Positions 2,978 through 62,027 of a stretch of 64,000 nt of DNA are shown here, piece by piece; the first letter of the stretch is position 1; the number at the start of each line of letters is the position of its first letter. Below the pieces are notes generated by a model. It had not been told where the DNA came from, did not search any database, and saw only the letters and a program-made list of their open reading frames with translations. The stretch is from Aureococcus anophagefferens (Eukaryota; Sar; Pelagophyceae; Pelagomonadales; Pelagomonadaceae). The position numbers and the translations under genes were made by a program. The DNA is taken from contig NW_008705590.1 in the NCBI RefSeq assembly GCF_000186865.1, positions 100,856 through 164,855 on the forward strand. The letters run 5' to 3'.

Positions 2978-4853
2978 TTACGCGACGCCCGGGAGGATGG
3001 GCAGGACGTAGCCGCAGTCCTCCCGGGGGCCCTTGCCGCCGCTCCCGTCGGACGCGCCGAACTGGTCGAAGCAGTCGCAGGTGCCCTTCTCGTAGTCGCA
3101 GAGCCCGCGGCCGCTGCACTCCTTGACGTCGACGACGTAGGCCGTCAGGGGGTCGTCGCCGGCGAGGCACGTGCGCAGACTGCAGTCGTAGCCCGCCCAG
3201 CCGTCGTCGCAGTGGCAGCCGCGGACCATGTCGTCGTCCCAGGTGTAGGGGTCGTTGACGTCGCTCCGGTAGGGCGCGCGGCCCGCGGCCTCGAAGAGCT
3301 GGGCCATGGTCTTGCACTCGCCGTGGCCGTTGCAGGGCCGGAGCACGTCCGACGGGCACGCGAGGTACTCGCACGCGCTGCCCGCGAAGCCCTGCGCGCA
3401 CTCGCAGGTGCCCTCGTCGCGGAGGCACGTGCCCTTGTCGGAGCACTCCACCTCGGTCACGTGGGCCTCGTCCGTCGCCGTCGGCCGCCCGAACCAGGAA
3501 CGCCCCCGGGGGCACGCGAGGAGCGAGCAGTCCGCGCCTACCAAGCATGACGGTGACGATTTCTCGTTGTGTTCCCACCCCAAATCTCTCGAAAGTCGTC
3601 ACGGCCGCAGGACGCCGGTCCGCGCCCGTCCAGCCCTCCTGGCACGCGCACGCGTACGTGGGCTCGACGCCCGGGCCGGGGACGACGTCGTCGCAGACGC
3701 CGTGGCCGTTGCAGGGGATCTCGCCCGGGCAGTCCTCGATGGGCAGGTCGACGGCGACGCCGCAGTCGCCGCGCGTGCCGCGGCCGCCGTAGCCGTCGGA
3801 CGACCCCCACTTGTCCTGGTCGCAGCCGCAGCGGCCCGTGAGCGTGTCGCAGAGGCCCCGCCCGCTGCACTCGCGGTCCTCCTTCGTGCCCTTGGTCATC
3901 TCCGCGACGGAGATCTTGCCGACCTTGGTCGGGTAGAGCGTGTAGCCGAGGTCGCGGACGTCGGGCACGAGCGACGGCAGGTCCCCAAAGTCCTGGAGGA
4001 ACGAGATCTCCGTGACGACCGCCGGATGCCCGCAGAAGACGTCCACGGACCCGACGACGCCCACGGAGATGGCGCCGCCCGAGAGCTGGCGGTTCAGGGG
4101 CTCCGGCAGGAGGCCCGCCTCGTCGACGTACGCCTCGTCGCCCGCGGACGTCCGCAGCGTCGGCAGCTGCAGCAGCGCCGCGCGCACGTCGCTGGCCGTC
4201 GCGTCCCAGGGGATGGGCTTCGTCGACGCGCCCCGGAAGGCGAGGACGACGGTGCCGCGGTCGCCCTCGCACGTCACCCGCTGGACCTCGTTGTTTCCCT
4301 CCAGCGTGAACGGGTCGTCGCCCGTGGGGCAGTCCCAGACGGAGCAGTCGTGGGCCGCGAAGCCCGCCGCGCAGGAGCAGCTCCGCAGCATCTTGGCGTC
4401 CCAGGCGCCCGAGTAGTCGTAGACCTCGCCCGCGCCGGGGTCCCCGCGCGACGCGTAATACTCCAAGGTCACGCACGCGCCGCGGCCGTAGCACGCGTCG
4501 CCGCAGGACGACCGCTCGCAGGCCGCGCCCTCGAAGCCCGCCTGGCAGACGCAGCGCGCCTGCGTCGCGTCGCGGTCGCAGAGGCCCTTGCGGCTGCACT
4601 CGGCGGCGCCGTGGCCGACGCCCGACGCCGCGATCGCGGAGACCTCGTCGGCCCAGGCCCGGCCGACGGGGCACGTGCGCCGGCTGCAGTCCGCGCCCGT
4701 CCACGTGTCCGCGCAGTTGCAGACGTGGTAGACGTCGCAGAGCCCGTGGCCGCTGCAGGAGTTCGCGCAGGGCGAATTGATGAAGCCGGGCTGCCCGAGG
4801 CCGCCCGTGAACAGGCAGGCCGCGAGGAGGGCTGCTGTTCTGTGTGGTCTCAT
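2978..4853 (-). CDS. Secreted protein with about eight EGF-like repeats
   Basis: Two exons, 3614-4853 and 2978-3537, joined across an introner intron (3538-3613) in phase 1, give 599 aa. The start MRPHRTAALLAACLFTGGLG is a signal peptide. It is followed by eight EGF/tenascin-type Cys modules of the form CSGHGLCD...C.C..GWTGADC, often introduced by a CP.G.AW motif typical of extracellular stramenopile proteins. A region of about 120 residues in the middle, between modules 3 and 4, has no Cys pattern and looks like an immunoglobulin-like or sugar-binding insert. There is no C-terminal membrane anchor, so secretion or wall attachment is inferred. The introner lies inside an EGF module, so precise splicing is needed to keep the Cys spacing. 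Confidence 0.85.
3538..3613 (-). mobile_element. Introner element, family A copy 1 (76-nt intron)
   Basis: Element 3538-3617 lies between perfect 8-bp duplications GTCCGCGC at 3530-3537 and 3618-3625. In the sense of the host gene it begins CGGC|GTCCTGCGG and ends CTTGGTAG, with subterminal inverted repeats CGTGACGACTTTCG and CGGTGACGATTTCTCG. Splicing GT..AG leaves one duplication plus CGGC, adding 12 nt. Confidence 0.9.
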
Positions 4854-5109
4854 CGTTCCGCGCTTTGGTCAGGACACGCCCCGCCCGCGCGCGCGGCCGC
4901 GGCGGCGCTCGAGCTGTGCCGCTACCGCCGGTCCGCTGGCGTCCTTTATCAACGCCTGCAAGTTCGTTATGTTTACCTTTAAAAGCTTTAGCCGGCCTGG
5001 CGCGGTTTGCTGCTCTCCGTGCCGCGAACTTTTTCTCATCACGCTCTCAGCCAAAGCAAAGCACAGTCCCGAGGTTTGACAGAACGTAAAAACCAAAACA
5101 GAGTACACC
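4854..5109. promoter_or_regulatory. Divergent intergenic region (bidirectional promoter candidate)
   Basis: This 256-bp gap separates the starts of the EGF-repeat gene (minus) and the YdhR-like gene (plus). It holds an AT-richer patch around 4962-4992 (gttatgtttacctttaaaag) in otherwise GC-rich DNA. No defined motif can be named; a shared promoter is inferred from position. Confidence 0.4.
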
Positions 5110-5718: not shown

Positions 5719-5771
5719 GCGACGGCGCGCGCGCGCGTGTGTGTGTGGAAAGACTAAGCCCCCGGGCTGTG

Positions 5772-6760
5772 TTACATGAACCTCCAGAGGCAGTCGCGGT
5801 GGACGATGTCCGGCGACGTGTGGATGTTGCGCGCGTCGCTGTAGAGGAGGATCTCCCGGCCGCGGCCGTAGCTCGGCCGGACGATGGACGCCTCGGGCAC
5901 GTCGTCGACGTCGAGGTATCTGGCCGCGGGGTAGAACTCGCGGGGCGACGAGATGGTCTCCTCCTCGTCCGTGACGACGAGGTGCGACAGGGCCGCGACG
6001 TGGCTGAAGACGCCGCAGCCCTCGTAGCGGTCCGACGCGGGAAAGCCAAGCATCGCCTACCAAATGTAACGACTTTTCATTGTTTCCCCTACCCGAAATC
6101 TCTCGAAAATCGCCTCGGCCACAGGACGCCGAGCATCGCCGTGACCGCCCGCTCGTCGCCCGCGCGGTCCTGGTGCCACGCGTGCCTGGCGACCTTCGTC
6201 GCGCCCGGCCCGCCGACGATCTCGATGAAGTGGCCCGTCGCCGGCGCGACGCCGTCGAGCTCCAGGCCGCCGATGGCTTCGAGGAAGGCATCGCCCGACG
6301 GCGCGCCGGCCCCGAGCGCGTCGCGGAGCGCCGCGGACAGCGCCGGGCTCGCGCCGCCGCGCCAGGAGCCCTGGGCCGACGCGGCCAGGTCGAAGCGCAC
6401 GGGCGAGTCCTCGGCGACGCGGTCGTCTCGCGCCGCGCGCCGCAGCGCTTCGCGGAAGGCCGCGCTCTCGTCGTAGGCCTCGCCGATGCCGCTCCCCGCG
6501 AAGAGGTCGTCGAGCGCGACGAACTCGTACCAGCTTTGTTCGCAGGGCGCGCCGCGGCAGCGCTCGGGGACAAGGAGAGATTCCGCCGCCTCGTTGGCCG
6601 TCTGCGCCTGGCAGAGCATGGCTGCGTCGAAGGGCGGCGGTTTCTTCAACTGCGGCGCGCCAGGTGTAGGCCGGCGGCTGCCGACCTTCGTTTTACGGCG
6701 CGGCCGCGCCGAGAGCGCCGCGGCGCAGGCCAGGACGAAGACGGCTCGTGCAGGCGCCAT
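5772..6760 (-). CDS. Secretory-pathway Fe(II)/2OG-type oxygenase-like protein
   Basis: Exons 6128-6760 and 5772-6056 joined in phase 0 across an introner (6057-6127) give 305 aa. The N-terminus MAPARAVFVLACAAALSA is a signal peptide. The C-terminal half has RHAWHQD, then SDARNIHTSPD and HRDCLWRFM, spaced like the HxD...H metal triad and the 2-oxoglutarate Arg of PhyH/2OG oxygenases. The assignment rests on these motifs only. The splice makes a tandem AMLG-AMLG, the four-codon scar of the introner. A gap of 84 bp separates its start from the divergent gene at 6845. Confidence 0.65.
6057..6127 (-). mobile_element. Introner element, family A copy 2 (71-nt intron)
   Basis: Element 6057-6131 is flanked by perfect 8-bp copies AGCATCGC (6049-6056, 6132-6139). 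Its host-sense ends are CGGC|GTCCTGTGG and ATTTGGTAG. The inner region GAGAGATTTCGGG matches the other A copies. The host reading frame is kept with a 12-nt gain. Confidence 0.9.
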
Positions 6761-6844
6761 GCCCTAAAATGAAAATCCACAAAGCGGAGGACAGCACATC
6801 CACTCGCCGAAGCCTCGCGCCGCGCGCCACGACGCCCGAAAACC

Positions 6845-7270: not shown

Positions 7271-7416
7271 AGCTTCCGCGAGACAAATCCCGTCTAGAAG
7301 TAAGTTGCTCGATTGCTCAGGACCGTCGTTGTCCGTAGCGGGCCCCCTGTCTACAGCACACAGAGAGAGTCCCCGTCTCGAGAGAGAGCACTACGTACTA
7401 CGCCGCGCCCGCGCAC

Positions 7417-8190: not shown

Positions 8191-8309
8191 GGTCGTTGCA
8201 AGGACGCTGCTCTTCGTGGCCCAGACGCGAGGCCTCTGATCGCCCACTGCACACCCGGAGCGAGCAGTGCATGTTGAACCTTGCACATCGGCACATCCCA
8301 CAGCAGCTG

Positions 8310-10459
8310 TTAATTCAGCGCGCCCGGCGCGAAGAGAACGCGCACGAGGCTCCCCGCGACGGCGAGCTCGTGGACGCGCGCGTCCAGGAGCTCGTGGACG
8401 TCGTCGTCCGCGAAGACGCCCCGCCGCCCGTCCACCAGCAGCTCCCGGATCACGTCGGCCTTGTCGAGGCGCTCGCGCTTCACGGAGCGCACGACGACGT
8501 GGTCGAGGTGGAGCGTCTTCAGGTAGGCCTCGATGGCCTCGCGCCGCGCGTTCCGCGTCACGACGAAGGCCGACCCCGCGGGCACCTCGGCCAGGAGCTC
8601 GACGAGGGCCTCGTCGGACGACACGGCCTTCTTCGAGTCCTTCGCCGACGGCGCCATGGGATCCGCGCCGCTCCGCGTCGAGCAGAGCGTCCGGTCGAAG
8701 TCGAGGAACAGGCACGGCGGCGCGGCGCCGCCTCTCAGCTCGCGGTACGCGCGCGCGACGTCGTCGCCGTCGCCCCGCAGGAGAGCGCACTGCGCGCAGG
8801 AGTGGGCGTCGCAGCCGACGCAGCGCCTCGCGTGCGCGCAGAAGCCCGAGGCCGCGCCCCGGCGGCCGTGGCGGCGCACGGGGCAGCCCTTTTCGCCCCG
8901 CGGGCACCGGCCCTCGCGCCGTTCCTCCCGCTCGCAGCCCCAGCAGACGCCGTCGCGGGCCCAGGCGCGCTGGAACGTTGTGCCCTCGCACTTCCAGCAG
9001 GCCGCGTCGCCGTCGAGGTGCAGGCGCGCGGCGCGGATGCGGCCCGAGACCGCCGGGTCGGGCGGCCAGCCCTCGCGCGCGACGATCGCGTCGACCTTGG
9101 CGTCGAACTTCGCGACGACCGCCGCGGCGGCGGCGACGCCCGCGGCGAGGTCGCGGAAGCGCGGCGGCAGCGACGCCGCGCCCGCGTCGCCGCAGACGAA
9201 GACGCGCCCGTCGCTCTCCTCGAGCGCCGCGCCGCACGCGAGCCGCGCGCCGCGCAGGACCGCCGCGGCCGCGCGCATCGTCGCGACGTGCTTCGAGCAC
9301 TGGAGCGCGCGGCTCAGGAGCGCGTACCTGCCCTCGGCGACGCTCAGCGCCGCCGCCTCGCGCTCGCGGTCGCCGCGGAGCGCCTCGAGGCGCGCGGCCG
9401 CGGCCTCGAGGTCTTCCGGCGCGGCCGCGAGCGACGCGGCGTACTCGGCGACCTGCGCCGAGATGGCCATGGCCTTGGCGCCGCCGCGGCAGACGACCTA
9501 CCGAGCGCGACGGTGACGGTCTCCCACCCCACATCTCTCGAACATCGTCACGGCCACAGGACGCGGCAGACGACGGAGGCCCGCGCGAAGGCGCGCTCCT
9601 CCTCGGTGACGCCGTCGACGGCTTTCAGCGAGACGTCGATCTCGTCGAGGCCCGCGAGGCGCACCGCGTTTCCCCGCGCGTCGTCCTCGTCCTCGTCGAC
9701 CGGCGGCGGCCGCACCGCCTCGTCGACGCGCCGCGACCGCCAGAGCAGCTTCGCCGCCAAGCTCCCGGACGTCGCCAGCGCCCGGAGCCGCGGCGGCCGC
9801 GGCAGCTCCGGGTGCCGCGGGAGGCAGCACGCCCATTTCGTGACGTCCCGAGCGTCCTGCAGCGCGAGCAGCGTGCCGCGGCAGTCGTGGAGCGCCTTGG
9901 ACACCTCCTGGTAGTCCGCCTGCGACGACACCCACGCGTGGTCCCGGTAGCGGCCGCGCTTGCCGCCCTCGTAGGACACGCCGCTCGCCTCGTCGTCGAC
10001 GAAGAAGAAGGCGCCGAGCCGCATGAGCGCGAGCTCGAGGAAGCGGCCCTCGTTGAAGAGGCGCAGGCAGATCTTCTTCAGCGAGATGATCTCGCGCCGC
10101 GCGTCGAAGGCGCGCGCGAGCGGCGCCCGGACCGCGGCCTCGACGCGCGCCGCCGCGGCCGGCGCGAGGACGAGCGCGAGGTCCCGTTCGATGAGCGAGT
10201 AGCGGCCCTGCTCGTACATGAGCATGTTCTGCGGCGTGAAGCGCAGCGGGTCCGTGAAGTCGCGCGGGTAAAGGTGTGCAGCGCGCAAGGCCGTGTCACC
10301 ATTGCTGGCGGCGCCTTCGTCGTCGGTCGAGGCTTCGCTGGAGTGGTCTGCACATGCAGTGTCGCCGTCGGACGGCGCGACAGAGGCCGACAACTCGCTG
10401 GAGTGCTCCAAACGCGCGGTGCCGCACAACGCGACAGAGGCCGACAACACGCGGTCCAT
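8310..10459 (-). CDS. HAD-like protein with Cys-rich zinc-binding region
   Basis: Exons 9563-10459 and 8310-9497 join in phase 0 across an introner (9498-9562), giving about 694 aa. The N-terminus has degenerate 20-aa repeats (EHSSELSASVAPSDGD and related). The middle of exon 1 is unassigned. Exon 2 carries a Cys cluster (CWKCEG...CWGCE...CP.G..GCP...FCAHARRCVGCDAHSCAQCALL) that looks zinc-binding, then a HAD-type motif FLDFDRTLCSTRSG near the C-terminus with an acidic FADDDVHELLD motif, consistent with a phosphatase-like Rossmann fold. I do not know a family with this order. A shorter gene starting at the ATG at 9470 is possible, but the introner duplication shows the two exons were once continuous. 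Confidence 0.65.
9498..9562 (-). mobile_element. Introner element, family A copy 3 (65-nt intron)
   Basis: Element 9498-9566 is flanked by perfect 8-bp copies CAGACGAC (9490-9497, 9567-9574). Host-sense ends are CCGC|GTCCTGTGG and CTCGGTAG, with GTGACGATGTTCG and GGTCTCCC inside. Splicing yields a VVCR-VVCR tandem in the product. Confidence 0.9.
10310..10455. repeat. About 60-bp degenerate tandem repeat in a coding N-terminus
   Basis: The unit contains GCGACAGAGGCCGACAAC and TCGCTGGAGTG; two fuller copies and a partial third are visible. On the minus strand it encodes the 20-aa SSELSASVA/SSEASTDD repeats of the HAD-like protein. Confidence 0.6.
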
Positions 10460-10658: not shown

Positions 10659-11565
10659 ATGCTCGACTTCTCCGCGCCGCCGAACTTCCCGACGAGCAGC
10701 GACGCGCTGGCGCTCCTGGGCGACGACCTGGACTACGACTTCGCGGGCCGCATCGCCGGGCCCTACGCCTTCTGGCTCGACTGGAAGGTGCCCGCGCTCG
10801 GCGTGCTCTTCTACCTCGTCGTCAGCGAGCCGCTCTTCGACGCCGTGCGCGGCGTCACCGGCGGCGTCCACAAGGGCGTCGTCTTCGCGCACAACGTCGC
10901 GCTCGCCGCCTACAGCGGCTGGTCCGCGTTCTACACGTGGCGGATCCTCTTCGCCGCCATCGCGCGGAGCGGCTTCCGCGGCATGCACTGCGACCGCGAC
11001 GTCTGGCGCGGCGCCGACGGCTTCGGCACCTTCGCCGTCATCTTCTACGTGAGCAAGTACTACGAGTTCGTCGACAGCTGGATCCTCGTGCTCAAGAACT
11101 CGGACGGCAAGCACGCGCCGAGCTTCCTCCAGAAGTACCACCACGCGGGCATCGTCGTCTGCATGTATGCGGCCGTCGTCTCCGAGGCGAACTGGATGCT
11201 CATCGCCGTGACCTTCAACTGCACGATCCACTTTTTCATGTACTCGTCGCGCGGCCGCGCGGGCGACTTTCGACGCCGGCGAGAGACGGGGATGTTTCCG
11301 TCTTCGAGGAACGCCGCGCCGCCTCAGGTACTACGCGGCGGCGACGCTCGGCTACAAGTCGCCGCTCGCGAAGCTGCTGACGACGTGCCAGATGCTCCAG
11401 TTCATCATCGGCATCGTCTCCGCGGGCGCCTGCTACTTCTACGACCCCTGCGCCGGCGCGAACAAGCCCGCGCAGCTCGCCTGCGGCCTGACGCAGGTCT
11501 ACGCCGCGGGCCTCATCTACCTCTTCAACGAGATGCGCAAGCGCAAGTACGGCAAGCGGGCCTAG
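10659..11565 (+). CDS. Very-long-chain (PUFA-type) fatty acid elongase
   Basis: Exons 10659-11245 and 11328-11565 give 274 aa. It is an ELO 3-ketoacyl-CoA synthase, the condensing enzyme of ER fatty-acid elongation. Motifs in order: KYYEFVDSW (KxxExxDT box), FLQKYHHAG (histidine box of the Q-x-x-HH class seen in protist PUFA elongases), NCTIHFFMYS|YY and TTCQMLQF. Several hydrophobic helices and a basic C-terminus KRKYGKRA fit ER retention. The intron (11246-11327) splits the Ser codon of MYSYY. It leaves no duplication, so it is an ordinary, older intron. Confidence 0.92.
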
Positions 11566-13876: not shown

Positions 13877-15439
13877 ATGCGGCTGCCGGAGATGGAGCTG
13901 CACCACAAGGCGACGCGCGAGGAGCGGCGGCCGCTGCGCCACAGCGGGAGCGCCGACCGCCTCGAGACCGGTGCGGGCCCGCTGCCCCTGGGCCTCATCG
14001 GCTGGTTCGGGTCCTACGCCCTCGTCGTCAACAACATCTCGGGCCCGGGCATGCTGGACTTCCCACGAGCCTTCCAGGAGGCGGGCGCCGTGCCCTGCGC
14101 GCTCTGCATCGGCGTCGTCGCCTCCGTGTCCGCCGTCGTCGCCGTCTACCTCGCGGACGCGCACCGGTCGCTGCGCCGGGGTTCGGGCGCGCTCGAGTTC
14201 AGCGACGTCTTCGGCGAGCTTATCGGCCGCCGTGTCTTCCTCGCGACGCAGGCGCTCTACTTCCTCAACCTCTTCAGCCAAAACGTCGCGGCGATCGTCG
14301 CGACGGCGCGGGCCGGGGCAGGAAATGGGTCATCTTCAACATGAGTGTTCCAGAGAAAGGATCCACGCTTCGAGAGCGCTCCGAGAGATCATCGCCCGTC
14401 CAAAAATGAGCCGAAAGGAGTGGAACGTGACCGAGAGAGGAGCCTCCAAAGATGTCCGGGAATTCCGCACCCTTGTCCTCCTCAGGCGCAGGCGACCGAC
14501 AGTATGTTCGCGGTGCTGCTCTCGCGGTCCGTGGCGCTGGCCGTGCCCCTCGACGGGTCGCGGCCCCTGTTTCTGGAGTGGACGGGCTGCCTGCGGGACG
14601 GCTGCACGCCCTTCGACGACGAGCGCGGCCTCGCGCCGTCGGCGCTCGTGTTGACGGCGGGCTACGTCTTCTCGGCCGCGACGCTCGCGCCGCTGGGCTT
14701 CGTGTCGCTGCGGGAGAACATGCTCGCGCAGAAGTTGTCCTTCGTCCTGCTCATCGTGCTCTGCGCCATCTTCCTGGGGTCCTTTTGGTTCACGCTGGGC
14801 GACGGCGCGGTCGCGGCCGTGGGGCCGAAGTCGTGGGACGTGCTCGGCGTCGTCATCTTCAACTTCGCCTTCTGCGTGACCGTGCCGTCCTGGCTCAACG
14901 AGAAGGCGGACCACGTCGACGAGACGCCCGTGATCTGGGCCGCCTGCCTGTCGACGGGCGTCGGCTACGTCGTCTTCGGATGGCTCGGCGGTTTAGCGTA
15001 CGAGGTCGCGCCGGACAACGTCCTCGACGCGCTCACGGGCCGCGCGGCGTCGACGCTGACGCGCGTCGCCGGCGGCGTCTTCGCCTTCGCCATCATCGGG
15101 CTGGGCGTGCCCATCTTCAGCGTGCTCATGCGCTACAATTTGGTCTCCGGCGGCTTCGGCCGCACCGCGGCGACGGTCGTCGCGGGCGCGCTGCCCTGGG
15201 CGGCGAGCTGGCTCGTCTATCGCGGCCACGGCATCGTCAACGTGCTGAGCTGGAGCGGCCTGATTCTGAACTCCGTCGTCGACTTCGGGCTGCCGCTCTG
15301 CGCGGCGCTCGCGACGATGGACAAGCGGACGCCGGGCCAGCGCGTCCGCGCGCGGCTCCTGCTCTTCCTCGTCTCCGTCGGCGTCGTCGTCGGCCTCGTC
15401 ATGAAGGTCGTCTCCGGCGACCCGCCCGGGCGGCGCTAG
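13877..15439 (+). CDS. Amino-acid permease-like transporter
   Basis: Exons 13877-14317 and 14486-15439, phase 0, give 464 aa. About ten hydrophobic helices are visible. The first has the unwound-helix motif NNISGPGMLDFP seen in amino-acid/auxin permease and tryptophan-permease families (APC superfamily), where it binds substrate. Later helices include VLGVVIFNFAFCVTVPSWLNE, also typical of these carriers. Transport of aromatic or other amino acids is a family-level inference. A family B introner in antisense orientation interrupts the gene after helix 3. The start shares a 253-bp divergent gap with the HDAC gene. Confidence 0.8.
14318..14485 (+). mobile_element. Introner element, family B, inserted antisense (168-nt intron)
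   Basis: Element 14314-14485 lies between GCGCGGGC (14306-14313) and GCGCAGGC (14486-14493), an 8-bp duplication with one mismatch. Its complement aligns with the copies at 18988 and 20419 (TTTTGGACG.GCGAT, CTCTCGGA.CG.TCTCGAAGC). It splices GC-AG (CGGG|GCAGGA ... CTCCTCAG) and keeps phase 0. Confidence 0.88.
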
Positions 15440-15467
15440 GATCGAAGGGGAGCTGACATTTAGTTCC

Positions 15468-17213: not shown

Positions 17214-17392
17214 CGGGCTGAGCGAGGCTACTTATGGGCTGCCCATCGTCGGCCGTTCCGGCGCCACTTTAGCCTCAGCAGGGATCGATGACGGCAAGCT
17301 GATGTCAACATCAGGACGCGCAAGAGAAGCCGGCCCTGCGTGGATCTCGCCTCCTGCCGCGCGCCATCGACAAGACCCACGCCAAAGAGAAG

Positions 17393-17584
17393 ATGTTCGG
17401 CAACGCCGCCAAGGGCGTGGTCCTGCGCCGCCGCACGGGCGACTGGCACATGTACGTGATCTCCGCCTTCGCCGGCGTCGTCGGCGGCTTCTACATATGG
17501 CTCGAGCCGCTCCGCGAGCTCCAAATGAACTCCCTGGCCAAGGACGCCGCGGAGGCCAAGGCCGCGAAGGAGGACAAGAAGTAA
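17393..17584 (+). CDS. 63-aa single-pass membrane protein
   Basis: Small protein with basic N-terminus (KGVVLRRRTGDWH), one membrane helix (YVISAFAGVVGGFYIWL) and a Lys/Ala-rich tail. It resembles small supernumerary subunits of mitochondrial respiratory complexes in shape only; no family is recognised. The ATG context GAAGATGTTC is acceptable. Its TAA is one base before the ATG of the AP endonuclease gene, extreme spacing for a nuclear gene pair, so the downstream transcript must start inside this gene or the two share a messenger. Confidence 0.6.
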   Translation: MFGNAAKGVVLRRRTGDWHMYVISAFAGVVGGFYIWLEPLRELQMNSLAKDAAEAKAAKEDKK

Positions 17585-17585
17585 C

Positions 17586-19516
17586 ATGCAACAACAGCTC
17601 CACCTCATCAGCTGGAACGTCGCCGGCTGGCGGACGACGCTCGAGGAGATGACTCGGACGACGAAGGCGAGGAAGGGCCGGAGCCCCGAGGAGGAGCACC
17701 AGGCGGCGCTGCGGAGCTGGCTCGAGCGCCTCCGCGCGGACGTCGTGTGCCTCCAGGAGGTCAAGCTCAAGCGGAGCGACGTCGAGGCGCAGGCGCGGCT
17801 CCTCGGCGCGGCCGCGGACGACGGGTCCTGGGAGACGTACTGGTGCTGCAACGACGGCAAGGCCAGGGGCCAGCGCGCGGGGCTCAACGGCGTCGCGACG
17901 CTCGTGCGCGGGGGCGCCTTCGGCGTCCTCCGCGCGGACGCGAAGCCCCTCGGGGACCCGGACTTCGACGACGAGGGCCGGTGCCTCGTCACGGAGCACG
18001 GCGGCTTCGTGCTCTTCAACGTCTACGTGCCGAACGCGGGCGGCGGCGCCCGCGTCGCCTACAAGATGGCCTGGCTCCGGGCGCTCCGGAGCGCCATGGA
18101 CCGCGAGCGCGCCGCGACGGGCAAGCCCGCGATTCTAGCCGGCGACCTCAACGCGAAGATGGGCCCCAACGATTCGCACTGGACCTTCCGGTCCGTCGAC
18201 TGCGGCAGGCTCGCCGCCGCCGCGGCCGCGGCGGCCCTCGACGACGCCCAGCGGGCGAGCCTCGAGGCCGCGGCGGCGGCCTGGCCGGCCGTCCGCGCGT
18301 CGCTCCGGCGCCGCGACGTCGCCGCGGTCACGACGGAGAACCCGACGACGCGCGAGAAGCACGACCGCTTCCGCTGCCGCGCCGTGCCCGCCGGCGGCGG
18401 CGCGCCGGTCCAGCTCGCGCCCTACGAAGCGCAGCGCAGCGCGGCCTTCGCCAACTACGAGACGGAGGGGCTCGCCGTCGACGGCGACGGCGACGTCGTC
18501 GCAGGGCCCGCGCCCCCGGGCGGCTTCCCCGTGCGCCCGCCGGACGTCCTCGACGTCGACTGCGCCCTCGAGGCCCTGGAGAAGCTCGGCGGCGCGCACG
18601 TGCCCCGGGAGACGATGAGGCGGGCCCTGGGCGCGCTCGCGCCGCCGCCGCCGGCGCCGACGGCCCCGGGCGCGCTGCCCGCGAGCTCGACGGCCTGGCT
18701 CCTCGGGCTCCGCGACGTCGACGGCATGGTCGACTCCCTCGACGCGCTCCACCCGCAGCGCAGCGAGCGCTTCACGTGCTGGCACCAGTACCACAACAAG
18801 CGCTACGAGAACGTCGGCAGCCGCATCGACTACGTCCTCGTCGACCGGGCCCTCTTCGAGGCGGCGGCGCCCGTCGCCGGCGCGCTCGACGCCGGCCTGC
18901 GCAGCGACGTGGATGCGAACACCGCGCGCGCGGCGCGCGGCGCCGCGGTCCTCGACGGCCGCTGGGCGCCCGCGGGCTTCGACCAGGGCAGGACAAGGGT
19001 GCGAAATTCCCAACTTCAAAGGCTCCTAGCTCGGCCGTTTTCCACTCGTTTCGGCTGATTTTTGGACGAGCGATCATCTCTCGGAACGGTCTCGAAGCAT
19101 GGATGCTTTTCCCGGAACGCGCGCGCGCGGAACACTCACGTTGAAGCGACGTTGAATCACCCTTGTGCTGCCCAGGCTTCGACGGCGGCGGCCTCCGCGA
19201 CGGCCGCGCGTCCGACTACCTGCACCACTCGAGCCACGCGCCCCACACGGGCATCCGCTACACGCCGCCGACCTGGAGCGACCACGTCGCGGCGACCCTG
19301 TGCCTGGGCGCCGCGCCCGCGGACGCCGCGCCGCGCGCCGCGCGCGCGGCCGGCGACGCGCAGCCCCACGCCAAGGTGCGCACCATCACCCAGTTCTTCT
19401 CCGCGGCCAAGCCCGGCGCCAAGCCCAGCGCCAAGCCCAAGCCGCCGCCGCCGCCCAAGCGCAAGAGCCCGCCGACGATCCGCGACTTCTTCGCGAAGAA
19501 GCCGAAGGCGCCGTAA
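17586..19516 (+). CDS. APEX2: AP endonuclease 2 (exonuclease III family) with PCNA-binding tail
   Basis: Exons 17586-18987 and 19176-19516, phase 1, give 580 aa. Exonuclease/endonuclease/phosphatase fold: ISWNVAGW (metal site), CLQEVKL (catalytic Glu), AGDLNAKMG (Asp-Asn), RIDYVLVD and WSDHVA (catalytic Asp-His). It cleaves DNA 5' of abasic sites and removes 3' blocks in base-excision repair. The C-terminus has TITQFFSAAK, a QxxhxxFF-type PCNA-interacting box, and a second FF motif, TIRDFFAKK. The GRF zinc finger of animal APEX2 is absent. A family B introner splits the catalytic domain just before the final SDH motif, giving the four-codon scar GFDQ-GFDG. Confidence 0.9.
18988..19175 (+). 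mobile_element. Introner element, family B copy (188-nt intron)
   Basis: Element 18984-19175 sits between perfect 8-bp duplications GCTTCGAC (18976-18983, 19176-19183). Termini are inverted repeats: CAGGGCAGGACAAGGGTG and, on the complement of the far end, CTGGGCAGCACAAGGGTG. Frame requires a GC donor (CAGG|GCAGGA) and the AG of CTGCCCAG; the GT further in would break frame. Confidence 0.92.
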
Positions 19517-19599
19517 GGTTGAAGCTAGCGACAGATAGCGCGGTTGTGGGGCGCTTATCCAGAGGTTGTCATTGGCTGCGACGTCCAAACATCAGAGCG

Positions 19600-21557
19600 A
19601 TGGCACTCCAATGCGGCTCGGGCCTCGGCGCGGCTGCGGTCCACGTGCAGCGCTGCGCGTCCTGGCCCCTCGCGGAGATCGTCACGGCGCACCGGACGGA
19701 CCTGCTCGTCACCGAGTTCGCATCGCTGGACGAGGCCGAGGAGGCCTGGGGCAAGCTGTCCCTGTTGCACGCGTCCGTGCTCTTCGTCGGGCCAAAGGCG
19801 CTGCGCAGCTACGGGCGCACCCATAGCATCCGCCGCTGGAAGGAGCGCAGCGCGCGGCTCGAGGCGCGGCTCCCCGGCGAGTACGACGTCCGCGGCGCGA
19901 CGATCGCCGGCCGCGTCGTCTCGGAGATCGCGGCGACCGACGCGCGCATGCGCCGGCGCCTCGGCGCGGGCTTCGCCGCGCCGGCCTGGGTCGCCCACTT
20001 CCTGGCGCGGCGCGCCGCCGTGGACCCGTGCATCGCGGCCTGCCCGGCCGTCGCGGCCGCGCGCGCGCTCGCGGCGCTGCCCCGGCCGCCCATGCCGACG
20101 GGCGACGCCGACGCGCTGCTGCGCGCGCTCGACGCGGGCGGTGTCCCGACGCGCGAGGCCCACGTCTCGGCGACGGTCAAGGCCGCGCTGGACGCCGTCG
20201 CGGGCGCGAGCCCCGCGGGCGCGCGCGCCGTCGCCGCGTGGGTCCGCGGCCTCGCGCGCCTCGAGCCCCTGCGCCGGGGCCCCGGCCGCGCCCTCGCGCT
20301 GCCCGTCGACGCCCTCGACGCGGACCGGCTCGCCGCGGCGCTCCGCAGCGGCGCGCCGCGCGTCTCCGTCGCCGCGGCGACGGGCGCCGACGGCCGCCAC
20401 CGCTACGCGCTCGCCAGGGCAGCAAAAGGGTGCGAAATTCCCAACTTCAAAGGCTCATATCTCGGCCATTTTCCACTCGTTTCGGCTGATTTTTGGACGA
20501 GCGATCATCTCTCGGAACGGTCTCGAAGCGTGGATGTTTTATCTAGAACGCGCGCGCGCGGAACACTCACGTTGAAGCGACGTTGAATCTCTCTTGTCCT
20601 GCCCAGGCGCTCTCTCTCTTCCTCCCCGCGCTCGGCGCGTCGCTGGCGACGGCGCCGCGGCGCTTCAAGGCCTTCGCCGCCGTCGAGGAGGCGCTCCGGC
20701 GCCTGGACCCGCAGGCGAGCCTGAGAGCGCCGCCGCCCCCGGCGCGCCGGCTCTCGTCGCGCGTCCGCGGGCTCGCGGCCGCCGAAATCGAGGAGCGCCG
20801 CGCGGACCTCGCCGCCTACGTCGAGCGCCTCCTCGACGCCTACGACGGCCTCGGCGCGCGCGCGCGCGGCGCCGTCGCGTCGTGGCTCGCGGGCCTCGCG
20901 GCGCCCGACGCGCCCGACCCGCGGCCCGGGTCCCGCGTGCTCGCGGCGCGCGCGCGCGAGCCCCCGGGCCGCGACGCGCTCCTGTCCCTCTGCGGGCCCG
21001 ACGACGTCGCGCGCCCGGCGCGCCGCGCGCCGTCGGACGACGACCTCTACCGCCTCGCGTCGGAATGCCGCGCCGTCGCGCCGCCGGCGCCGCGCGGCGC
21101 GGAGGCGCTCGCGACGCTGTCGGAGGCGACGGCGGGCACGCTGGCGGCGCTGGGCGAGCGCGTCGACGGCGCCCTCGGCACGGAGCGGCCGGGCCGCCGC
21201 GCGCCCGGGAGCCTCCGGGCGCCGGCTCCCGGCGGCGCGCTCGCGACGGCCGCGGTCGGCGGCGGCCCGGAGGCCGTGGCGCTCGGCGGCGCCCTCGAGA
21301 CGACGACGGCCGCGGTCGGGGCGACGACCGAGTTCCTGGCCGACGGCCTCTTCGCGATCGGCGACGGCCTCATGGGCCTGGGCCTGGGCGTCCCGGCTAC
21401 GGGGCGGCGGCACCGCTGCGGCTCGCTCGAGGCGCAGGTCGACGAGGCGACGCGCGCGGCCGCCCTCGCGCGCGGCCGCTGCAGCACGCTCGAATACCAC
21501 GTCGACGAGGCGCACCACATGGCGCCCCTCGCCCGCGTGCCCGCGGGCGCAGCATAA
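19600..21557 (+). CDS. PX (phox homology) domain-like protein
   Basis: Exons 19600-20418 and 20607-21557, phase 0, give 589 aa. Exon 1 is Ala/Arg-rich and begins with a region rich in short beta strands (VHVQRCASWPLAEIVTA, DLLVTEFASLDEAEEAW) that could be another lipid-binding fold. Exon 2 starts with a PX-like segment: APRRFKAFAAVEEALRR, a Pro-rich loop, then EIEERRADLAAYVERLL, matching RRF..F..L, PxxP and the R..L..yl..l helix. PX domains bind phosphoinositides on endosomes. A family B introner lies between the exons. The last ~20 codons belong to an 85-bp sequence found again near 26983, so the C-terminus may have been replaced. Confidence 0.6.
20419..20606 (+). mobile_element. Introner element, family B copy (188-nt intron)
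   Basis: Element 20415-20606 lies between GCGCTCGC (20407-20414) and GCGCTCTC (20607-20614), one mismatch. It has the same length and orientation as the copy 1.4 kb upstream and is roughly 90% identical by eye. GC-AG splicing in phase 0 joins ALAR to ALSL. Confidence 0.9.
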
Positions 21558-32081: not shown

Positions 32082-33469
32082 ATGGCTGCCCCTTCTAGAT
32101 CTCGAGAAGAGATGGCTGGGCAGTCGAACGTCCTCGACCGGCCTCTCCTGGACGATGCCGAGGCGGGCATCCTCCTCGAGCGCACCGAGGCGGGCATCTC
32201 CGACGAGGCGCGCGCTTCGGGGGCCGACGCGGCGGCCGAGGCGCCCTACGACCTCGACAACGGCGGTCTGCACCCCCTGCGCCGGCTCCTCGTCCTCGCC
32301 GGCCTCTGGCGCCCCAGCGACCGGCGCGCGGTGCTCGCCTGGCAGGCGCTCGCGTTCCTGGCGGCGTGCTCGTTCCTCGCGCTGCAGCTCGCCGGCCTGG
32401 GCATCGACGGCGGCGGCGGCTGCCGCGCCGCGGCGGCGACGGGCAGCGCCTCGCGGATCGACGCGTTCTTCGCGCGCGCGCGGACGACCTTCCGCGTGCC
32501 CGGGGGCTGCTGGGAGATGATGGTGCCGGGCGCGCTGCTCAACGCGCTGCCCGTCGTCGCGTTCGCCTACTGCTTCTTCGACCTGAACCGCGACCTCTTC
32601 TCGGCGCGCGCGGACCACGTCGCCGCGATCGCCGCGCGCGTGCCGCGGTCCGCGCGGCCCGACTTCGAGCGCCGCGTCCGCCGCGCGGTCGCGGCGCTCG
32701 AGGCGCTCCACGTCGCCGCGTCCGTCGCGACGGCGACGCTCGACGAGCGCGGCTGGGCGGAGGTCGCGCCCTCCGCGCTCTACCTGTGGCTCTGGTGGGC
32801 GCCCGTCGCCGCGTTCGCCGCGCTCGCCGCGACGGTCTGCGAGGGCCACCGCTGCGACGCCGAGCGCCTCGCGGCGGACCTCGCGAGCGGCCGCGCGCCC
32901 GTGGCGGCCACCTACGCGGCCGCGGGCGCGCTCGACGCCCGCGTCGGCGCGTCCGCGACGCGGCTCGCCGCGTTCCTCTGGATCCAGTGCGCGCTGCCGA
33001 CGGCGTCCCTGACCGCGCTGGTCCTCACGTACGTCCTCAAGCGCGAGGTCCAGGCCGCCGAATTCGGCCAGTACTGGCTCCTGACCTACACGGGCCTGGC
33101 CGTGGCCGGCAACGCGATCTCGCTCGCGAGCGCCAGCGTCGAGCGACAGGAGTGTTTTTTCGCGTGAATTTCGCCTGAAGATGTGAAGAAATCCGACCCC
33201 GTCGCACTTGGTAGGCGAGCGCCGCGGGGCTGACGCACGCGTTCGACGACATCTTGCGCGCGATCAACGCGCGCCACGCGGACCTCGGCGCGGACCGGGG
33301 CGCGCGCGCGGACGTCGAGCACGCCAAGGGCTTCCTGCGGACGCTCGACGGCGGGCCCAAGTGCTGCGGCTTCCGCGTGGACGGCCTCTTCTGCGCGCAG
33401 TACGTCGGCCTGAACGTCGCCCTCGTCCTGGGGGCCGTCGAGGTCAACATGATGCGCGCGCCCACGTGA
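32082..33469 (+). CDS. Multi-pass membrane protein of unknown function
   Basis: Exons 32082-33137 and 33215-33469, phase 0, give 436 aa. An acidic N-terminus contains a repeated AEAGI..E...EAGI motif. Hydrophobic helices lie at about 85-107, 147-168, 220-250, 308-330, 340-356 and near 415-430. The layout resembles gustatory-receptor-like seven-helix proteins of protists, but the homology is not certain. The intron is a family C introner in the last membrane region; splicing leaves the scar SAS-ASA. An AT-rich stretch at 32010-32070 upstream is the likely promoter zone. Confidence 0.65.
33138..33214 (+). mobile_element. Introner element, family C copy 1 (77-nt intron)
   Basis: Element 33134-33214 is flanked by perfect 8-bp copies GCGAGCGC (33126-33133, 33215-33222). 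It begins CAGC|GTCGAGCGACAGG and ends CGCACTTGGTAG. It is 80/81 identical to the copy in the cathepsin B gene. GT-AG splicing in phase 0. Confidence 0.95.
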
Positions 33470-37208: not shown

Positions 37209-37857
37209 ATGATGGCCCTGCGCGGCCTCGTCCTCGCGCTGCTGCGACTCAGCGCGGCCTTCCGGCCCGCGTCTCACCCGCCGCAGCGTCGCATCGCTCT
37301 GTCGGCAACGGGCAGCGCCGCCGTCGCGGACGTCTCCGACGGGTTCCTGACGCCGCAGCAGATCAAGACCCTGCGCCGGGAGATCGACAACCGGCGGCGG
37401 CGGCGCACGCTGCCCTGGGGCCAGCTCGCCGCGGGCGAGGGCGTCGACGACGCGCCCTTCAGCGACGCCATCGTCGCCGCCGCGACCACCGGCTGCGAGA
37501 CGACGGAGTTCTTCGAGGTCAGCGGCCCGAGCGACCAGGACGCGAAGCGCTGGCCGGAGATCGCGTCCGCGCCGGCGTCCCTGCGGCCGCGACGATGTTC
37601 GAGAGACGGGAAACGACGAAACATCGTCACCGCTCGGTAGGTTCGCGCTCGCGCGCGAAGTCGACGCGATGGTCGTCCAGCTCAAGAAGCGCCGGGCCGT
37701 GCTCTACGTGCCGCTGCCGCCGGGCAGCGACGGCGCCGTCGTGCTCTGGACGACGGGCAAGATCGACCAGTGGACGCAGCGGCCGCGCGCGATCCGCGAC
37801 AACCGGGGCCAGATCCTCGGCCGCGAGGGCGACGCGGGCTTCGAGGAGGCCGATTAA
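37209..37857 (+). CDS. Plastid-type small protein, possibly CRM/YhbY-like
   Basis: Exons 37209-37576 and 37641-37857, phase 2, give 194 aa. The N-terminus MMALRGLVLALLRLSAAFRP has a signal peptide followed by AAF-RP, resembling the ASAFxP motif for import into heterokont plastids. The mature part has LTPQQIKTLRREIDN, VAAATTGCETTEFFEVSG, AMVVQLKKRRAVLYVPLPPG, a helix-strand order reminiscent of the CRM/YhbY RNA-binding domain, though the GxxG loop is not obvious. A family A introner separates the exons. The stop is three bases from the stop of the convergent beta-propeller gene. Confidence 0.65.
37577..37640 (+). mobile_element. Introner element, family A copy 4 (64-nt intron)
   Basis: Element 37573-37640 lies between GTCCGCGC (37565-37572) and GTTCGCGC (37641-37648), one mismatch. 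It starts CGGC|GTCCCTGCGGCC and ends CGCTCGGTAG, with inverted repeats CGACGATGTTCG and CGAAACATCGTC. It is the shortest A copy, and the only one in a plus-strand gene. Confidence 0.88.
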
Positions 37858-54383: not shown

Positions 54384-54495
54384 ACGAGCTAGAAGTATGG
54401 AGGATTCTCTTAGGGCTTGCTGCGGCGGTCCTCGCGCGCGCGGCGGGCCGGTTTGAGCGGTGGCGCCAGCGCGTCGCATCGCCGGCGTGGTCCGC

Positions 54496-55427: not shown

Positions 55428-56709
55428 CTAGGCCGACTTGGGGTGGCCGGCGACGGGCCCGCCGTTGATGACCGGGTCCTCGATCTGGCACGCGTTCTTG
55501 CCGCGGATGATCTTGAAGTAGCCGTCGTCGCCCCAGTCCTCGTTCCACGAGTTGGCCACGAGCCAGTAGTCCTTGCCGTCCTCCGTGCCGAAGCCCATGA
55601 TCTTGATCGCGTGGCCGCCGAGCGGCGGCGAGAGGAGCTTGGGCTCGTAGACGCCCGACTTGTAGGCGAGGAAGTCCTGCTTCACGAAGAACATGCCCGT
55701 GATGGGCCCGTTCTGGTAGATGTCCGCGGCCATCTTGATGGCGCACGTGCCCTCGAGCTCGCCCTGCTGGCAGACGGAGTAGCCCTTCTCGCCCTTGACC
55801 TTGGCCTTGGTCCAGTCCTTGTCCTCGGACTCGCACTTGCGCGCGCACTTGGGCGCCCGGACCTCGTCGGGGCACGCCGGGTACTTGGAGCTGTTGACGT
55901 GGTGCGCGCAGGGCTCGAGCTGGTAGGACCAGCAGCCGCTCTTGTCGCCGTAGTTGCCGCCGTCGACGATGCCCGAGAGGGCCCAGTACGAGTAGACGGA
56001 GCTCGGGATGCCGCCGTTGCAGCCCATGTCGCCGAGCTTGTCGCAGGACGTGACGTCCTGGGCGCTGAGGTGCGTCGTCACCGTGCCGTTGGACGCGATG
56101 CACATGCGGTCCGTCATGGCCTCCGTGGACCCGAAGGCCCAGCAGCTGCCGCAGTTGGCCTGGTCGCGGATCTCCTTGAGCGACGGGCACTTGGCCGCGC
56201 GCGGGTCAGTGCGCCAGTCGAACTCGGTCGGCACCTACCAAGCGCGACGGGGTCGGATTTCTTCACATCTTCAGGCGAAATTCACGCGAAAAAACACTCC
56301 TGTCGCTCGACGCTGGTCGGCACGGCGTCGAGCTCGGCCTGCGTGAACTCGCGGGCCTCGAGGACGTGCTCGTTCGTCGCGTCCTTGAGCACGCCCATGA
56401 GCTTGGCCGCGTCCTCGAGGGTCGCGCCGGCCCACTTGGGCGAGAGGTGGGCCTCCCAGCCGGCGTCGGCGAGGGACACGAGGAGGGCGTTGTCGATGGC
56501 GGGCGCCTTGAGGGCGTCGCCGGAGAGGAGGCCCTCCCACTGCTCGAGGGCGAGCGCGCCTATGTCGAGATCGGGGTCGCGGGGCTGCCCCGAAGGGCCG
56601 GGGAGGGGCCGCGGAAGGGGGAAGCGGGGCTGCTGGAGCGGGCGACGCTGCCCGTGGGGGCGGGAGCGGGCGACGCACCGGAGGCGAGGAGAGCGAGTTT
56701 GGCAGCCAT
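55428..56709 (-). CDS. Cathepsin B-like cysteine protease
   Basis: Main exons 56312-56584 and 55428-56234, joined in phase 0 by a family C introner. The mature enzyme has the oxyanion/catalytic site QANCGSCWAFG, the CNGGIPSS motif, the occluding-loop His pair CAHHVNSSKYPAC specific to cathepsin B, catalytic His in GGHAIKIMGFG and Asn in NSWNEDWGDDG. It is a lysosomal/vacuolar papain-family protease with carboxydipeptidase potential. The prodomain is short. The 5' end is uncertain: from the ATG at 56709 the frame fits only if a GC-AG intron (about 56585-56676) is removed, giving a brief MAAKLALLASG leader. Confidence 0.9.
56235..56311 (-). mobile_element. Introner element, family C copy 2 (77-nt intron)
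   Basis: Element 56235-56315 is flanked by perfect 8-bp copies GTCGGCAC (56227-56234, 56316-56323). In the host sense it differs from the copy at 33134 at one of 81 bases (CGCGCTTGG against CGCACTTGG). The splice gives a VPTS-VPTE tandem at the prodomain/mature junction. Confidence 0.95.
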
Positions 56710-56831
56710 AGCGCTTTGTGCGTTCGCGATCGATCTGGATGGCTCTCGGACTTCGACGGAAGCCTTGAAACACCTGTGATTCAAACGCGATGGCGCGCTC
56801 GGCGCGCCTCACTAGTAGTACTCCTTACACG

Positions 56832-59800: not shown

Positions 59801-62027
59801 TCCAGGGACACGCGCCGATTCCGCTCGCCCTCGGCGAGCGCGACGGCGAGCGCGACGGACGCCGCGCGCGCGTCGCGGCTCTCGGCCAGCGCCGCGTACG
59901 CGCGCATGGCGGCCTCGCTCGTGCGCCGCGCGCGCTCGAGCTCCGCCGCCGCCGTCGCCGCCGCGCGCGCCGCCGCGCGCCGGTCTTTCTCCCTCCGGAG
60001 GCGCTCGACGGCCCGGCGGTCCCGGAGCCGCCGCTCGGCCTCCTTCGTCGCGAGGACCCGCCGCTTCTCCTTCCGCGCGTCCACGAGCCGCTGGTGCTCG
60101 ATGACGGCCAGCGCGTGCGCCGCGTCCGACGCCGCGTCCGCCGCGGCCGCCGCGTCCTTCCGGGACAGCCGCGCGGCGTCGAGCCGCTCCCGCAAAGACG
60201 CGGCCTCGCGGTCCGCGAAGTCGTCGTCGTCCGCGTCCTTCTGCAGGACCTGGCTCCGCAAGTCGTCGTCGTCGTCCCAGTTCGGCGCCTCGTCGAGCGG
60301 CGCGTCGAATTCGTCCTTCGCCGCGAGCAGCTCCGCGGCGTCGACGGGCGACCCGGGCTCCGGGGGCCGCCGCGCGGCCGCGGCCATGGCCCGGAGCGCG
60401 TCCAGGTCCGGCCGCTTCGAGTTCACGGGCGGCCGCTTCTTCGACGGCGTGCCCACGCGGCTCCGCAGCTTCTCGAGCGCCGACGCCGCCGGCGTCGACC
60501 GCGCGGCGACGGACCCGAGGTCCGACTCCGTGACGTCGCTCAAGTCGTCGTCGTCCCACAAATCGTCGCGCCCCGTGGCCAGGAGCCGCGCGACGAGCGC
60601 GACGTCGTCGGCGCAGCCCGCGGCCAGCGCGTCCGCCACGTCGCCGCCGAAGGCGCCCAGCGCCGCCGCGAGGTCGCGCTGGAGCTTCGCGAGCGGCCCG
60701 CGGGGGAAGTCGCCGTCCTCGATGCGCTTCCGCCGCAGCTCGCGGAGCTCGGCCCGGAGCCGCTCGAGCCGCGGCGCGCCGCCGGCGGCGCCGCGCGCGA
60801 GGGCCACGGCGGCGCTCGCCGCGTCCACGCAGGCTTCCGAGGACGCCGCGGCGTCGCGCGCGGCGCCCTCGACGCGCGCGCGGCGCCGCGCGTCGCGCTC
60901 GCGCCGGATCACGGCGAGCTCCGCGGCCTCCGTCTCGGCGACGAGCCGCTGCGCGCTCGCCCGGGCCTCGAGCGTCGCCGCCGCCCGCCGCGCCTCCGCC
61001 TCGCTCTCGCGCCGGCTCCGCCAGAGGTCCTCGTCGTGGCGCGCGTCGTGCGAGTTCCAGAACGGCTCGTCGACCTGCGACGTCGCTTCAACGTGCGCGT
61101 TCCGCGCGCGCGCGTTCCAAAGAAAGCGTCCGCGCGTCCGCGCGTCGAGAGCGCTCCGAGCGATGATCGCTCGTCCCAAAGATCAGCCGAAACGAGTGGA
61201 AACCGGCCGAGAGATGCATTGGCCCCCTGTTTCGCGGCGCCGTCGCCGACGGGCTCCGCCTCCGCGAAGACGACGGGCGCCGACTGGACGCGCCGCACGC
61301 GGCCCGGGTCGTCGTCGGCGTCGCCGAAGGCCGCCTCGAGGAACGACGACGACACGGAGGCCTTCTTCGGCTTCGGCGGGCTCTTGGGCTTCTGGGGCGG
61401 ACTCTTGGGCTCGCCCGCGCGCTTCGACGCGCGCCGCGCGGCGCGGTGCCGCGCCTCCTCGCGCTCCGCGGCCACGGCCGCCGCGTTCGCCGCCTCGCGC
61501 TGGGGGCCGAGCGCGAAGACGAGGCTCAGCGGCCGCGGCGCGTCGCGGAGCCGCGCGAGGAGCGCGCCAAAGGCCTCGACGGTCGGGTCGACGACGAGGT
61601 CGACGTCGCCGTGGCCCGCGTCGACGCCCACGAGCTCGTCCGTCGGCGCGAGCATGCGCCGCGCGACGCCCAGCGGCCGCGTCGTCTCCACGACGACGAG
61701 GCGCCGGCTCAGCGCGGCCGACCGCGCGCCGTCGTCGCACTCGTCGACCGCGTCGAAGCGCGCGAGGATGAAGGACACGCCCAGGTCCCGCTCCTCGAAG
61801 GCGACGCTCCGCAGGCGGCCCTTCTCCAGGAGCGCGTCGTAGCAGGCGCGCGCGTCGGCCGCGAGCGCCAGCGCGTGCGCCGCCTCGAGGGCGCGTATGC
61901 TCTCCTGCGCCGCTTCCACGTTCTTCATGTCGCCGAGCACCGACGCCGTCGAATCGCTGAGGGCGCGGCGCCGCCGGCGCACGGCCCGCGTCAGCTCCAG
62001 GTTCGGGTCCTGCGACGCCGCCGCCAT
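56832..62027 (-). CDS. Giant coiled-coil protein (about 1,680 aa)
   Basis: Exon 1 61224-62027 and exon 2 56832-61074, phase 0 across a family B introner. Residues 1-268 include a folded N-terminal region (LSLVFALGPQREAANAAAVA and a Lys/Pro-rich KSPPQKPKSPPKPKK). Exon 2 is almost all heptad coiled coil, first Arg/Ala-rich (to ~930), then Glu-rich with near-perfect RARLDEDRARLDEERA-type repeats (57440-57790), ending KKGWFGMSKKAAAR. One base must be skipped near 59088 to pass from the first frame to the second, a likely indel. Similar proteins serve as Golgi, centrosomal or cytoskeletal tethers; the specific role is unknown. Confidence 0.75.
57440..57795 (-). repeat. Tandem coiled-coil codon repeats
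   Basis: Units of 21-24 bp such as TCCTCGTCCAGCCGCGCTCG are repeated about 14 times. They encode LDEDRAR/LDEERSR heptads of the giant coiled-coil protein. Confidence 0.8.
61075..61223 (-). mobile_element. Introner element, family B, diverged copy (149-nt intron)
   Basis: The host-sense sequence shares CCACTCGTTTCGGCTGAT, GACGAGCGATCATC and ACGTTGAAGCGACGT with the other B copies, but lacks ~25 bp at the start and ~20 bp at the end, and has no clear 8-bp duplication. Frame calls for GC (CAGGGG|GCCAAT) to AG. It is the oldest-looking introner here. Confidence 0.78.

What the first reader, a model, noticed from the sequence alone, without database searches (positions are those of the whole stretch)
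3530..61227. Ten of about 16 introns are introner elements from three families
Introns at 3538, 6057, 9498 and 37577 (family A), 14318, 18988, 20419 and 61075 (family B), 33138 and 56235 (family C) share sequence within families, and nine sit between 8-bp duplications (six exact, three with one mismatch). Introner elements are established in Aureococcus and Micromonas; three families active in one 64-kb window shows how much of the local intron content comes from transposition.
Basis: partly seen in the sequence, partly recalled or inferred. Interest (0 to 1): 0.85.

Follow-up and report, generated by a model that had tools for sequence, protein, structure and literature searches.

The report
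Transposon-made introns in Aureococcus
Ten introns in this stretch of a brown-tide alga's genome look like copies of short mobile DNA elements that turn into introns when they land in genes, a process already known in this alga; the commonest element here also exists in two forms that would be spliced in opposite directions.

Summary
All ten, not nine, have 8-bp duplications (6 exact, 4 at 7/8). Removing the upstream duplicate plus the element leaves coding signal in sense and in phase at 10 of 10.

The window is Aureococcus anophagefferens or a very close strain, where introners are already published. Families A and C share termini, so there are two end types. Genome counts: B 717+409 by 5' end, A 330, C 88-107. 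AG is the element's end; GC or GT comes from the duplicated target. Of 99 copies sampled without annotation, 95 have both flanks coding in sense, and 91 are in phase after exact removal.

Not in the finding: family B has two splice polarities. One body reads forward or in reverse, set by the second base of both ends. None of 100 examined copies combines a reverse-type 5' end with a forward-type 3' end, and cores of both types mix on a tree. A review says Huff et al. already reported both orientations.

No RNA evidence was available. No transposase was found, but those searches were uninformative.

The parts
3538..3625 (-). Introner intron A1 (element 3538-3617, TSD1 3618-3625, TSD2 3530-3537; GC-AG) in an EGF-repeat protein gene
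   Evidence: TSD 8/8; a Pfam EGF match spans the junction in the joined protein
6057..6139 (-). Introner intron A2 (element 6057-6131, TSD1 6132-6139, TSD2 6049-6056; GC-AG)
   Evidence: TSD 8/8; no Pfam match
9498..9574 (-). Introner intron A3 (element 9498-9566, TSD1 9567-9574, TSD2 9490-9497; GT-AG)
   Evidence: TSD 8/8
37565..37640 (+). Introner intron A4 (TSD1 37565-37572, element 37573-37640, TSD2 37641-37648; GT-AG), diverged copy
   Evidence: TSD 7/8; no Pfam match
14306..14485 (+). Introner intron B1 (TSD1 14306-14313, element 14314-14485, TSD2 14486-14493; GC-AG) in an amino acid transporter gene on the + strand; reverse-polarity (R) type: the family B core lies on the - strand
   Evidence: TSD 7/8; homologues continuous across the junction
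18976..19175 (+). Introner intron B2 (TSD1 18976-18983, element 18984-19175, TSD2 19176-19183; GC-AG), forward (F) type, in an endonuclease/exonuclease/phosphatase-family gene
   Evidence: TSD 8/8; same junction product in AURANDRAFT_68316
20407..20606 (+). Introner intron B3 (TSD1 20407-20414, element 20415-20606, TSD2 20607-20614; GC-AG), forward type, in a gene with a PX domain match
   Evidence: TSD 7/8
61075..61250 (-).
   Evidence: TSD 7/8
33126..33214 (+). Introner intron C1 (TSD1 33126-33133, element 33134-33214, TSD2 33215-33222; GC-AG)
   Evidence: TSD 8/8; no Pfam match
56235..56323 (-). Introner intron C2 (element 56235-56315, TSD1 56316-56323, TSD2 56227-56234; GT-AG) in a papain-family (cathepsin B-like) protease gene
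   Evidence: TSD 8/8; homologues continuous across the junction

Best explanation
The ten sites are introners: short non-autonomous DNA transposons that act as spliceosomal introns. Insertion duplicates 8 bp of coding sequence. The intron is the upstream duplicate plus the element: its first two bases (GC or GT) come from the duplicate, its last two (AG) from the element's end, so splicing gives back the pre-insertion mRNA. Shown by sequence: repeat families, 8-bp duplicates, end structure, sense orientation, in-phase removal. Inferred: splicing itself, cut-and-paste transposition, and a transposase supplied in trans. Family B also exists in two polarities, so one body makes introns in either direction; how it switches is open (inversion of the core between the inverted repeats is my first choice).
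For: Ten model hits at the ten sites. TSDs at ten of ten, in-phase sense coding flanks after removal at ten of ten, tested gene left out of training. Genome-wide 95 of 99 copies with both flanks coding in sense, 91 of 99 also in phase, none with both flanks antisense, against 66-69% in-phase coding on either strand at random positions. Start dinucleotide GC or GT in 38 of 40 F and 39 of 40 R copies in their splice sense, 15 of 40 and 10 of 40 in the other sense. Homologues continuous across B1 and C2; gene model across B2.
Against: No RNA evidence. No transposase or long element with these ends was found, though those searches were limited. The near absence of copies outside sense coding sequence is more than a simple picture of random insertion predicts, so target choice or strong selection must be added. 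Three of 40+40 B copies do not start GY in splice sense, and 5 of 80 have duplicates under 7/8. GC donors are commoner here (A 26 of 32, C 28 of 40 with good TSDs; B-F 27 of 40) than the 0-50% range given in PMC9860276 (passage).
Confidence: 0.94

Rival explanations
1. The introners spread by an RNA route (reverse splicing, then copying into DNA), as has been proposed for fungal introners, not as DNA transposons.
For: Nearly every sampled copy lies in sense orientation in coding sequence (95 of 99 both flanks), as an RNA intermediate would favour. No transposase was found.
Against: 8-bp duplications and inverted termini, strongest in B, are marks of cut-and-paste DNA transposons. The B core occurs in both orientations relative to splicing, which simple reverse splicing of one RNA does not give.
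Confidence: 0.04
2. For the two polarities of family B: a single old switch gave an F and an R lineage, and gene conversion between copies later mixed their cores, so no repeated inversion is needed.
For: Polarity is clustered on the tree (14 changes against 28 for shuffled labels, 0 of 500 shuffles as low), and only 7 of 81 inner branches are well supported. Conversion tracts that spare the ends would give the same picture.
Against: Starred branches force at least 4 changes, and F copy L151 differs by one base from each of four R cores. Conversion would have to spare both ends each time.
Confidence: 0.45
3. The GC/GT at the start of the duplicates is a target preference of the transposase rather than the result of selection for splicing.
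For: A and C duplicates also favour C at position 8 (21 of 32 and 21 of 30 against 37.5%), as a symmetric G......C target would. Almost no non-GY copies persist.
Against: In B the GY follows the splice sense, not the core: it moves to the other end in R copies. B shows no position-8 preference.
Confidence: 0.25
4. The segments are ordinary repeats or variable coding insertions that are not removed from mRNA.
For: No RNA data; at 72% GC open frames are common by chance.
Against: For eight of the nine genes tested the retained intron leads to a stop within 8-59 codons or a frame change (A1 stays open in another frame; the A3 value there came from a misplaced border). Coding signal is in phase only after removal. 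The A1, B1 and C2 products give domains or homologues across the joint.
Confidence: 0.03

Closest known systems
Introner elements of Aureococcus anophagefferens (Huff, Zilberman and Roy 2016, Nature, doi 10.1038/nature20110; not held; known here from citing papers and recall)
   Same: Same or near-identical organism; one splice site carried by the element and the other taken from the duplicated target (recalled from that paper's abstract); B introns of 200 bp fit the characteristic length of about 210 bp quoted in PMC9481584 (passage); insertion in both orientations is attributed to Huff et al. by PMC10228655 (passage).
   Different: I could not check whether families A and C (intron lengths about 76-89 bp), the strict coupling of the two ends, or the mixing of F and R cores are described there.
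Introner families surveyed by Gozashti et al. 2022 (PMC9860276, passages)
   Same: Non-autonomous DNA elements with TSDs and TIRs; the mode with an element-borne 3' splice site and a TSD-borne 5' splice site; their method also allows for opposite-orientation copies.
   Different: Their Aureococcus sp. example (Fig. 2F legend) carries both splice sites and adds 12 bp; these do not. Their supplementary family tables were not available to me.
hAT-type MITEs
   Same: 8-bp duplication and a CAGGG terminus in family B (hAT signature recalled, not from a call).
   Different: No hAT transposase match in this assembly, with a control that rang nowhere; A and C have other termini; these copies sit in genes as introns.

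Membership tests
Introner elements | Near-identical introns at many unrelated sites of one genome | tested here: met
   B 717+409, A 330, C 88-107 matches by terminal patterns, controls 0-3
Introner elements | Target-site duplication at each insertion (8 bp reported for Aureococcus in recall; 8 bp TSD in the Aureococcus sp. example of PMC9860276) | tested here: met
   10 of 10 in the window at 7/8 or better; 75 of 80 fetched B copies at 7/8 or better
Introner elements | One splice site in the element, the other co-opted from the duplicated target; exact restoration of the frame | tested here: met
   By sequence only: GY start and AG end; 91 of 99 in phase after exact removal
Introner elements | Removed from mRNA by the spliceosome | not testable with these tools
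   No RNA data; one public gene model product and homologues agree with removal
Non-autonomous DNA transposon (MITE) | Terminal inverted repeats | tested here: met
   B: about 18-bp inverted ends matching except mainly at base 2 in many copies. A and C: only partial similarity of the two ends by eye
Non-autonomous DNA transposon (MITE) | An autonomous partner with the same ends and a transposase | tested here: inconclusive
   All 10 unpaired C 5' ends and 9 of 22 unpaired 3' ends fetched are short copies; A and B ends were not examined for long elements
hAT superfamily | hAT transposase in the genome | tested here: inconclusive
   PF05699: no match, but the control search rang nowhere
KDZ (Zisupton-like) superfamily | KDZ transposase in the genome | tested here: inconclusive
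   PF18758: no match, but the control search rang nowhere

The most novel reading that the evidence does not exclude
Family B is an introner with an invertible core. The outermost bases fix which end is the splice acceptor, while the core between the inverted repeats has flipped repeatedly relative to them, by recombination between the repeats or during repair. One transposon body thus makes introns in either direction without passing through a non-spliceable state. Support: 717 F and 409 R 5' ends; none of 100 examined 3' ends is joined to a 5' end of the other type; at least 4 and on the best tree 14 polarity changes; an F core one base from four R cores.
Probability: 0.35. Interest if true: 0.65.

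Novelty: already known. Interest (0 to 1): 0.42.

Why it matters
Introners are a leading explanation for bursts of intron gain. The copies here were sampled by DNA sequence without gene annotation, and still almost all sit in sense orientation in coding sequence, which makes target choice versus selection a sharp question. Forward and reverse copies of one element separate what the element adds to splicing from what the target adds: R copies use GT starts in 26 of 39, F copies in 11 of 38 (p = 0.0013). If the core inverts, it is a simple way for a transposon to serve both strands.

Tried and rejected
Autonomous element: I paired the 88 C 5' ends with the 100 listed of 107 C 3' ends; 10 and 22 were unpaired. 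I fetched the ten 5' ends, nine of the 22 3' ends and one paired copy of odd length (L088). They are diverged, truncated or internally duplicated short copies, or in L084 an A/C chimaera. Thirteen unpaired 3' ends were not fetched in that call; one of them (C15:820779) was already in hand as L065. Ends of A and B were not examined this way.

Transposase: PF05699 and PF18758 gave no match, with controls that rang nowhere.

Other introns: a scan for GY duplicates with a preceding AG gave 51 pairs on both strands, among them five of the ten known sites plus A1, A2 and C2 on the minus strand; the others were not followed up.

Long ORFs as gene evidence: rejected, since 104 ORFs of 250 aa or more overlap one another in the window. 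I used a codon model (6 genes, 2,657 codons) and phase after removal instead. Three of the 99 copies (L009, L039, L064) lie in training genes.

Mistakes mended: the first A3 border was two bases off; the right one was used. One F and R comparison is paired data (two readings of the same copies), so its p-values are only a guide. The tree's bootstrap had not settled. The two F and one R copies without GY were not resolved; two F copies had misplaced ends.

Pfam was run on 8 of the 10 products (A3 and B4 left out); 5 of 8 had a match.

Literature: Huff et al. 2016 is not held. Passages only were seen of PMC9860276, PMC9481584, PMC7789003 and PMC10228655; PMC11237714 was read as the first of two parts; the rest are search listings.
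Full report
WHERE IT IS. The window is G000:C30:100856-164855 of a 49.05-Mb assembly in 86 contigs, 71.8% GC. A search with the spliced permease product returned AURANDRAFT_68316 of Aureococcus anophagefferens, 98% identical over 27% of the query; a later part of that protein is the B2 gene product. The organism is A. anophagefferens or a very close strain.

THE OBSERVATION. Consensus elements: A 80 bp, CAGCGTC...TTGGTAG; C 81 bp, CAGCGTC...TTGGTAG; B 192 bp, CAGGGCAG...CTGCCCAG. A and C align better than any of 500 shuffles (score 19 against a maximum of 16), and L084 has an A 5' part with a C 3' end, so I treat them as branches of one type. Random pairs reach 7/8 in 0.29% of trials.

HOW IT WORKS. 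In splice sense the upstream duplicate nearly always begins GC or GT and the element ends AG. Taking the intron as upstream duplicate plus element removes the insertion exactly. For the ten window copies both flanks then have their best coding frame on the sense strand and in phase, ten of ten. Outside support: the B2 joint RWAPA-GFDGG is in AURANDRAFT_68316 (that allele may or may not hold the insertion); permease homologues run through the B1 joint; protease homologues run through the C2 joint; a Pfam EGF match spans the A1 joint. Genome-wide, of 99 near-complete copies with 240-bp flanks, 95 have both flanks on the sense strand, 91 are also in phase after removal, and none has both flanks antisense (three of the 99 lie in training genes). 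Random positions are in-phase coding on either strand 66% (window) or 69% (other loci) of the time, so about a third would be sense by chance. Selection, targeting or both must explain the excess.

COPY NUMBER AND AGE. B: 717 CAG-type and 409 CTG-type 5' ends by exact pattern, controls 0; 1,122 3' ends, control 0. A: 330 5' ends with up to 3 mismatches, control 0. C: 88 5' ends with up to 2 mismatches, control 0, 107 3' ends with up to 3, control 3. Mean pairwise identity: C 97.6%, A 88.5% (top hits, so biased to young copies); B cores 93.0% within F, 92.5% within R, 91.8% between.

TWO POLARITIES OF FAMILY B. The window copy B1 (14306-14485) lies in a permease gene on the + strand, but its core matches the B model on the - strand. 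Genome-wide, copies whose core begins CTG instead of CAG end CTG (or CCG, CGG) instead of CAG, which puts AG at the other end. Of 40 fetched F copies, 38 start GC or GT in the forward sense (15 in the reverse sense); of 40 R copies, 39 do so in the reverse sense (10 in the forward sense). I then took the first 100 listed of 1,122 3' ends. Sixty-seven paired with listed 5' ends: 43 A/A, 22 T/T, 2 T/C, none of A with T. I fetched the other 33: the 24 A-type 3' ends have CAG, CGG, CCG or decayed 5' ends, none CTG; of the nine T/C/G-type ends eight have CTG and one (L183) is irregular. Of 22 R copies with flanks, 21 are sense and in phase in the reverse direction. On a tree of cores without their ends (80 fetched plus 4 window copies) polarity needs 14 changes (12-15 in bootstraps; 28 for shuffled labels); starred branches force at least 4; only 7 of 81 inner branches are starred and the bootstrap had not settled. 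F copy L151 differs by one base from each of four R cores. Changing polarity by point mutation needs two changes through a state not seen among the 100. Inversion of the core between the inverted repeats explains the coupling in one step; gene conversion after one old switch is the main rival. R copies start GT more often (26 GT, 13 GC) than F copies (11 GT, 27 GC), p = 0.0013.

TARGET. A and C duplicates favour C at position 8 (21 of 32 and 21 of 30, background 37.5%); B does not (6 of 10 and 7 of 22). Intron phase departs slightly from the GY background (p = 0.02). GC starts are the majority in A (26 of 32), C (28 of 40) and B-F (27 of 40).

SEARCH FOR A DRIVER. No long element with C ends turned up in what I fetched, and two transposase families gave no match with uninformative controls.

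WHAT IS KNOWN. Introners are published for this alga. PMC9860276 (passages) describes 5' splice sites taken from TSDs and allows for opposite-orientation copies in its method; PMC9481584 (passage) gives about 210 bp as the characteristic length; PMC10228655 (passage) says that Huff et al. 2016 reported insertion in both orientations. I could not read Huff et al. or any supplement. Searches for introner with 'both orientations' (1 paper) and 'opposite orientation' (2 papers, not opened for that phrase) gave no account of coupled ends or core inversion that I saw; this does not show that none is in print. I file the finding as already known and put the invertible-core reading in the section on the most novel reading.

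Noticed in passing
window 14306-20414; P0148: The public model AURANDRAFT_68316 appears to fuse three genes: it runs from permease exon 1 (up to the B1 joint) into the end of the B2 nuclease product and on into the start of the B3 product.
   Followed up: partly
L072 and L065 (C15:816945 and C15:820717): Two C copies about 3.8 kb apart with the same duplicate and near-identical exon sequence: probably a gene duplicated after insertion.
   Followed up: no
L084 (C2:651850-651929): Chimaeric element with an A 5' part and a C 3' end; a B copy starts about 60 bp downstream at C2:651988.
   Followed up: no
L088 (C47:9799-9907) and L074 (C1:1934241): C-type copies with an internal duplication of part of the element.
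   Followed up: no
L081 (C8:1184314 and C8:1184597): Two C copies 283 bp apart on the same strand, the second lacking its 5' end.
   Followed up: no
window 21942-22991: About eleven registers of a 75-bp tandem repeat, in frame with long ORFs.
   Followed up: no
window 24794-26029: Repeats of about 156-169 bp in tandem.
   Followed up: no
window 29682-29980 and 57408-57830: Short-unit repeats: 9/12-bp GGCGGCTAC-like units, and a 21-bp unit.
   Followed up: no
window 11057-11327: Exact 8-bp repeat GTACTACG around a 263-bp, 63% GC segment ending in AG: possibly another or older insertion.
   Followed up: no
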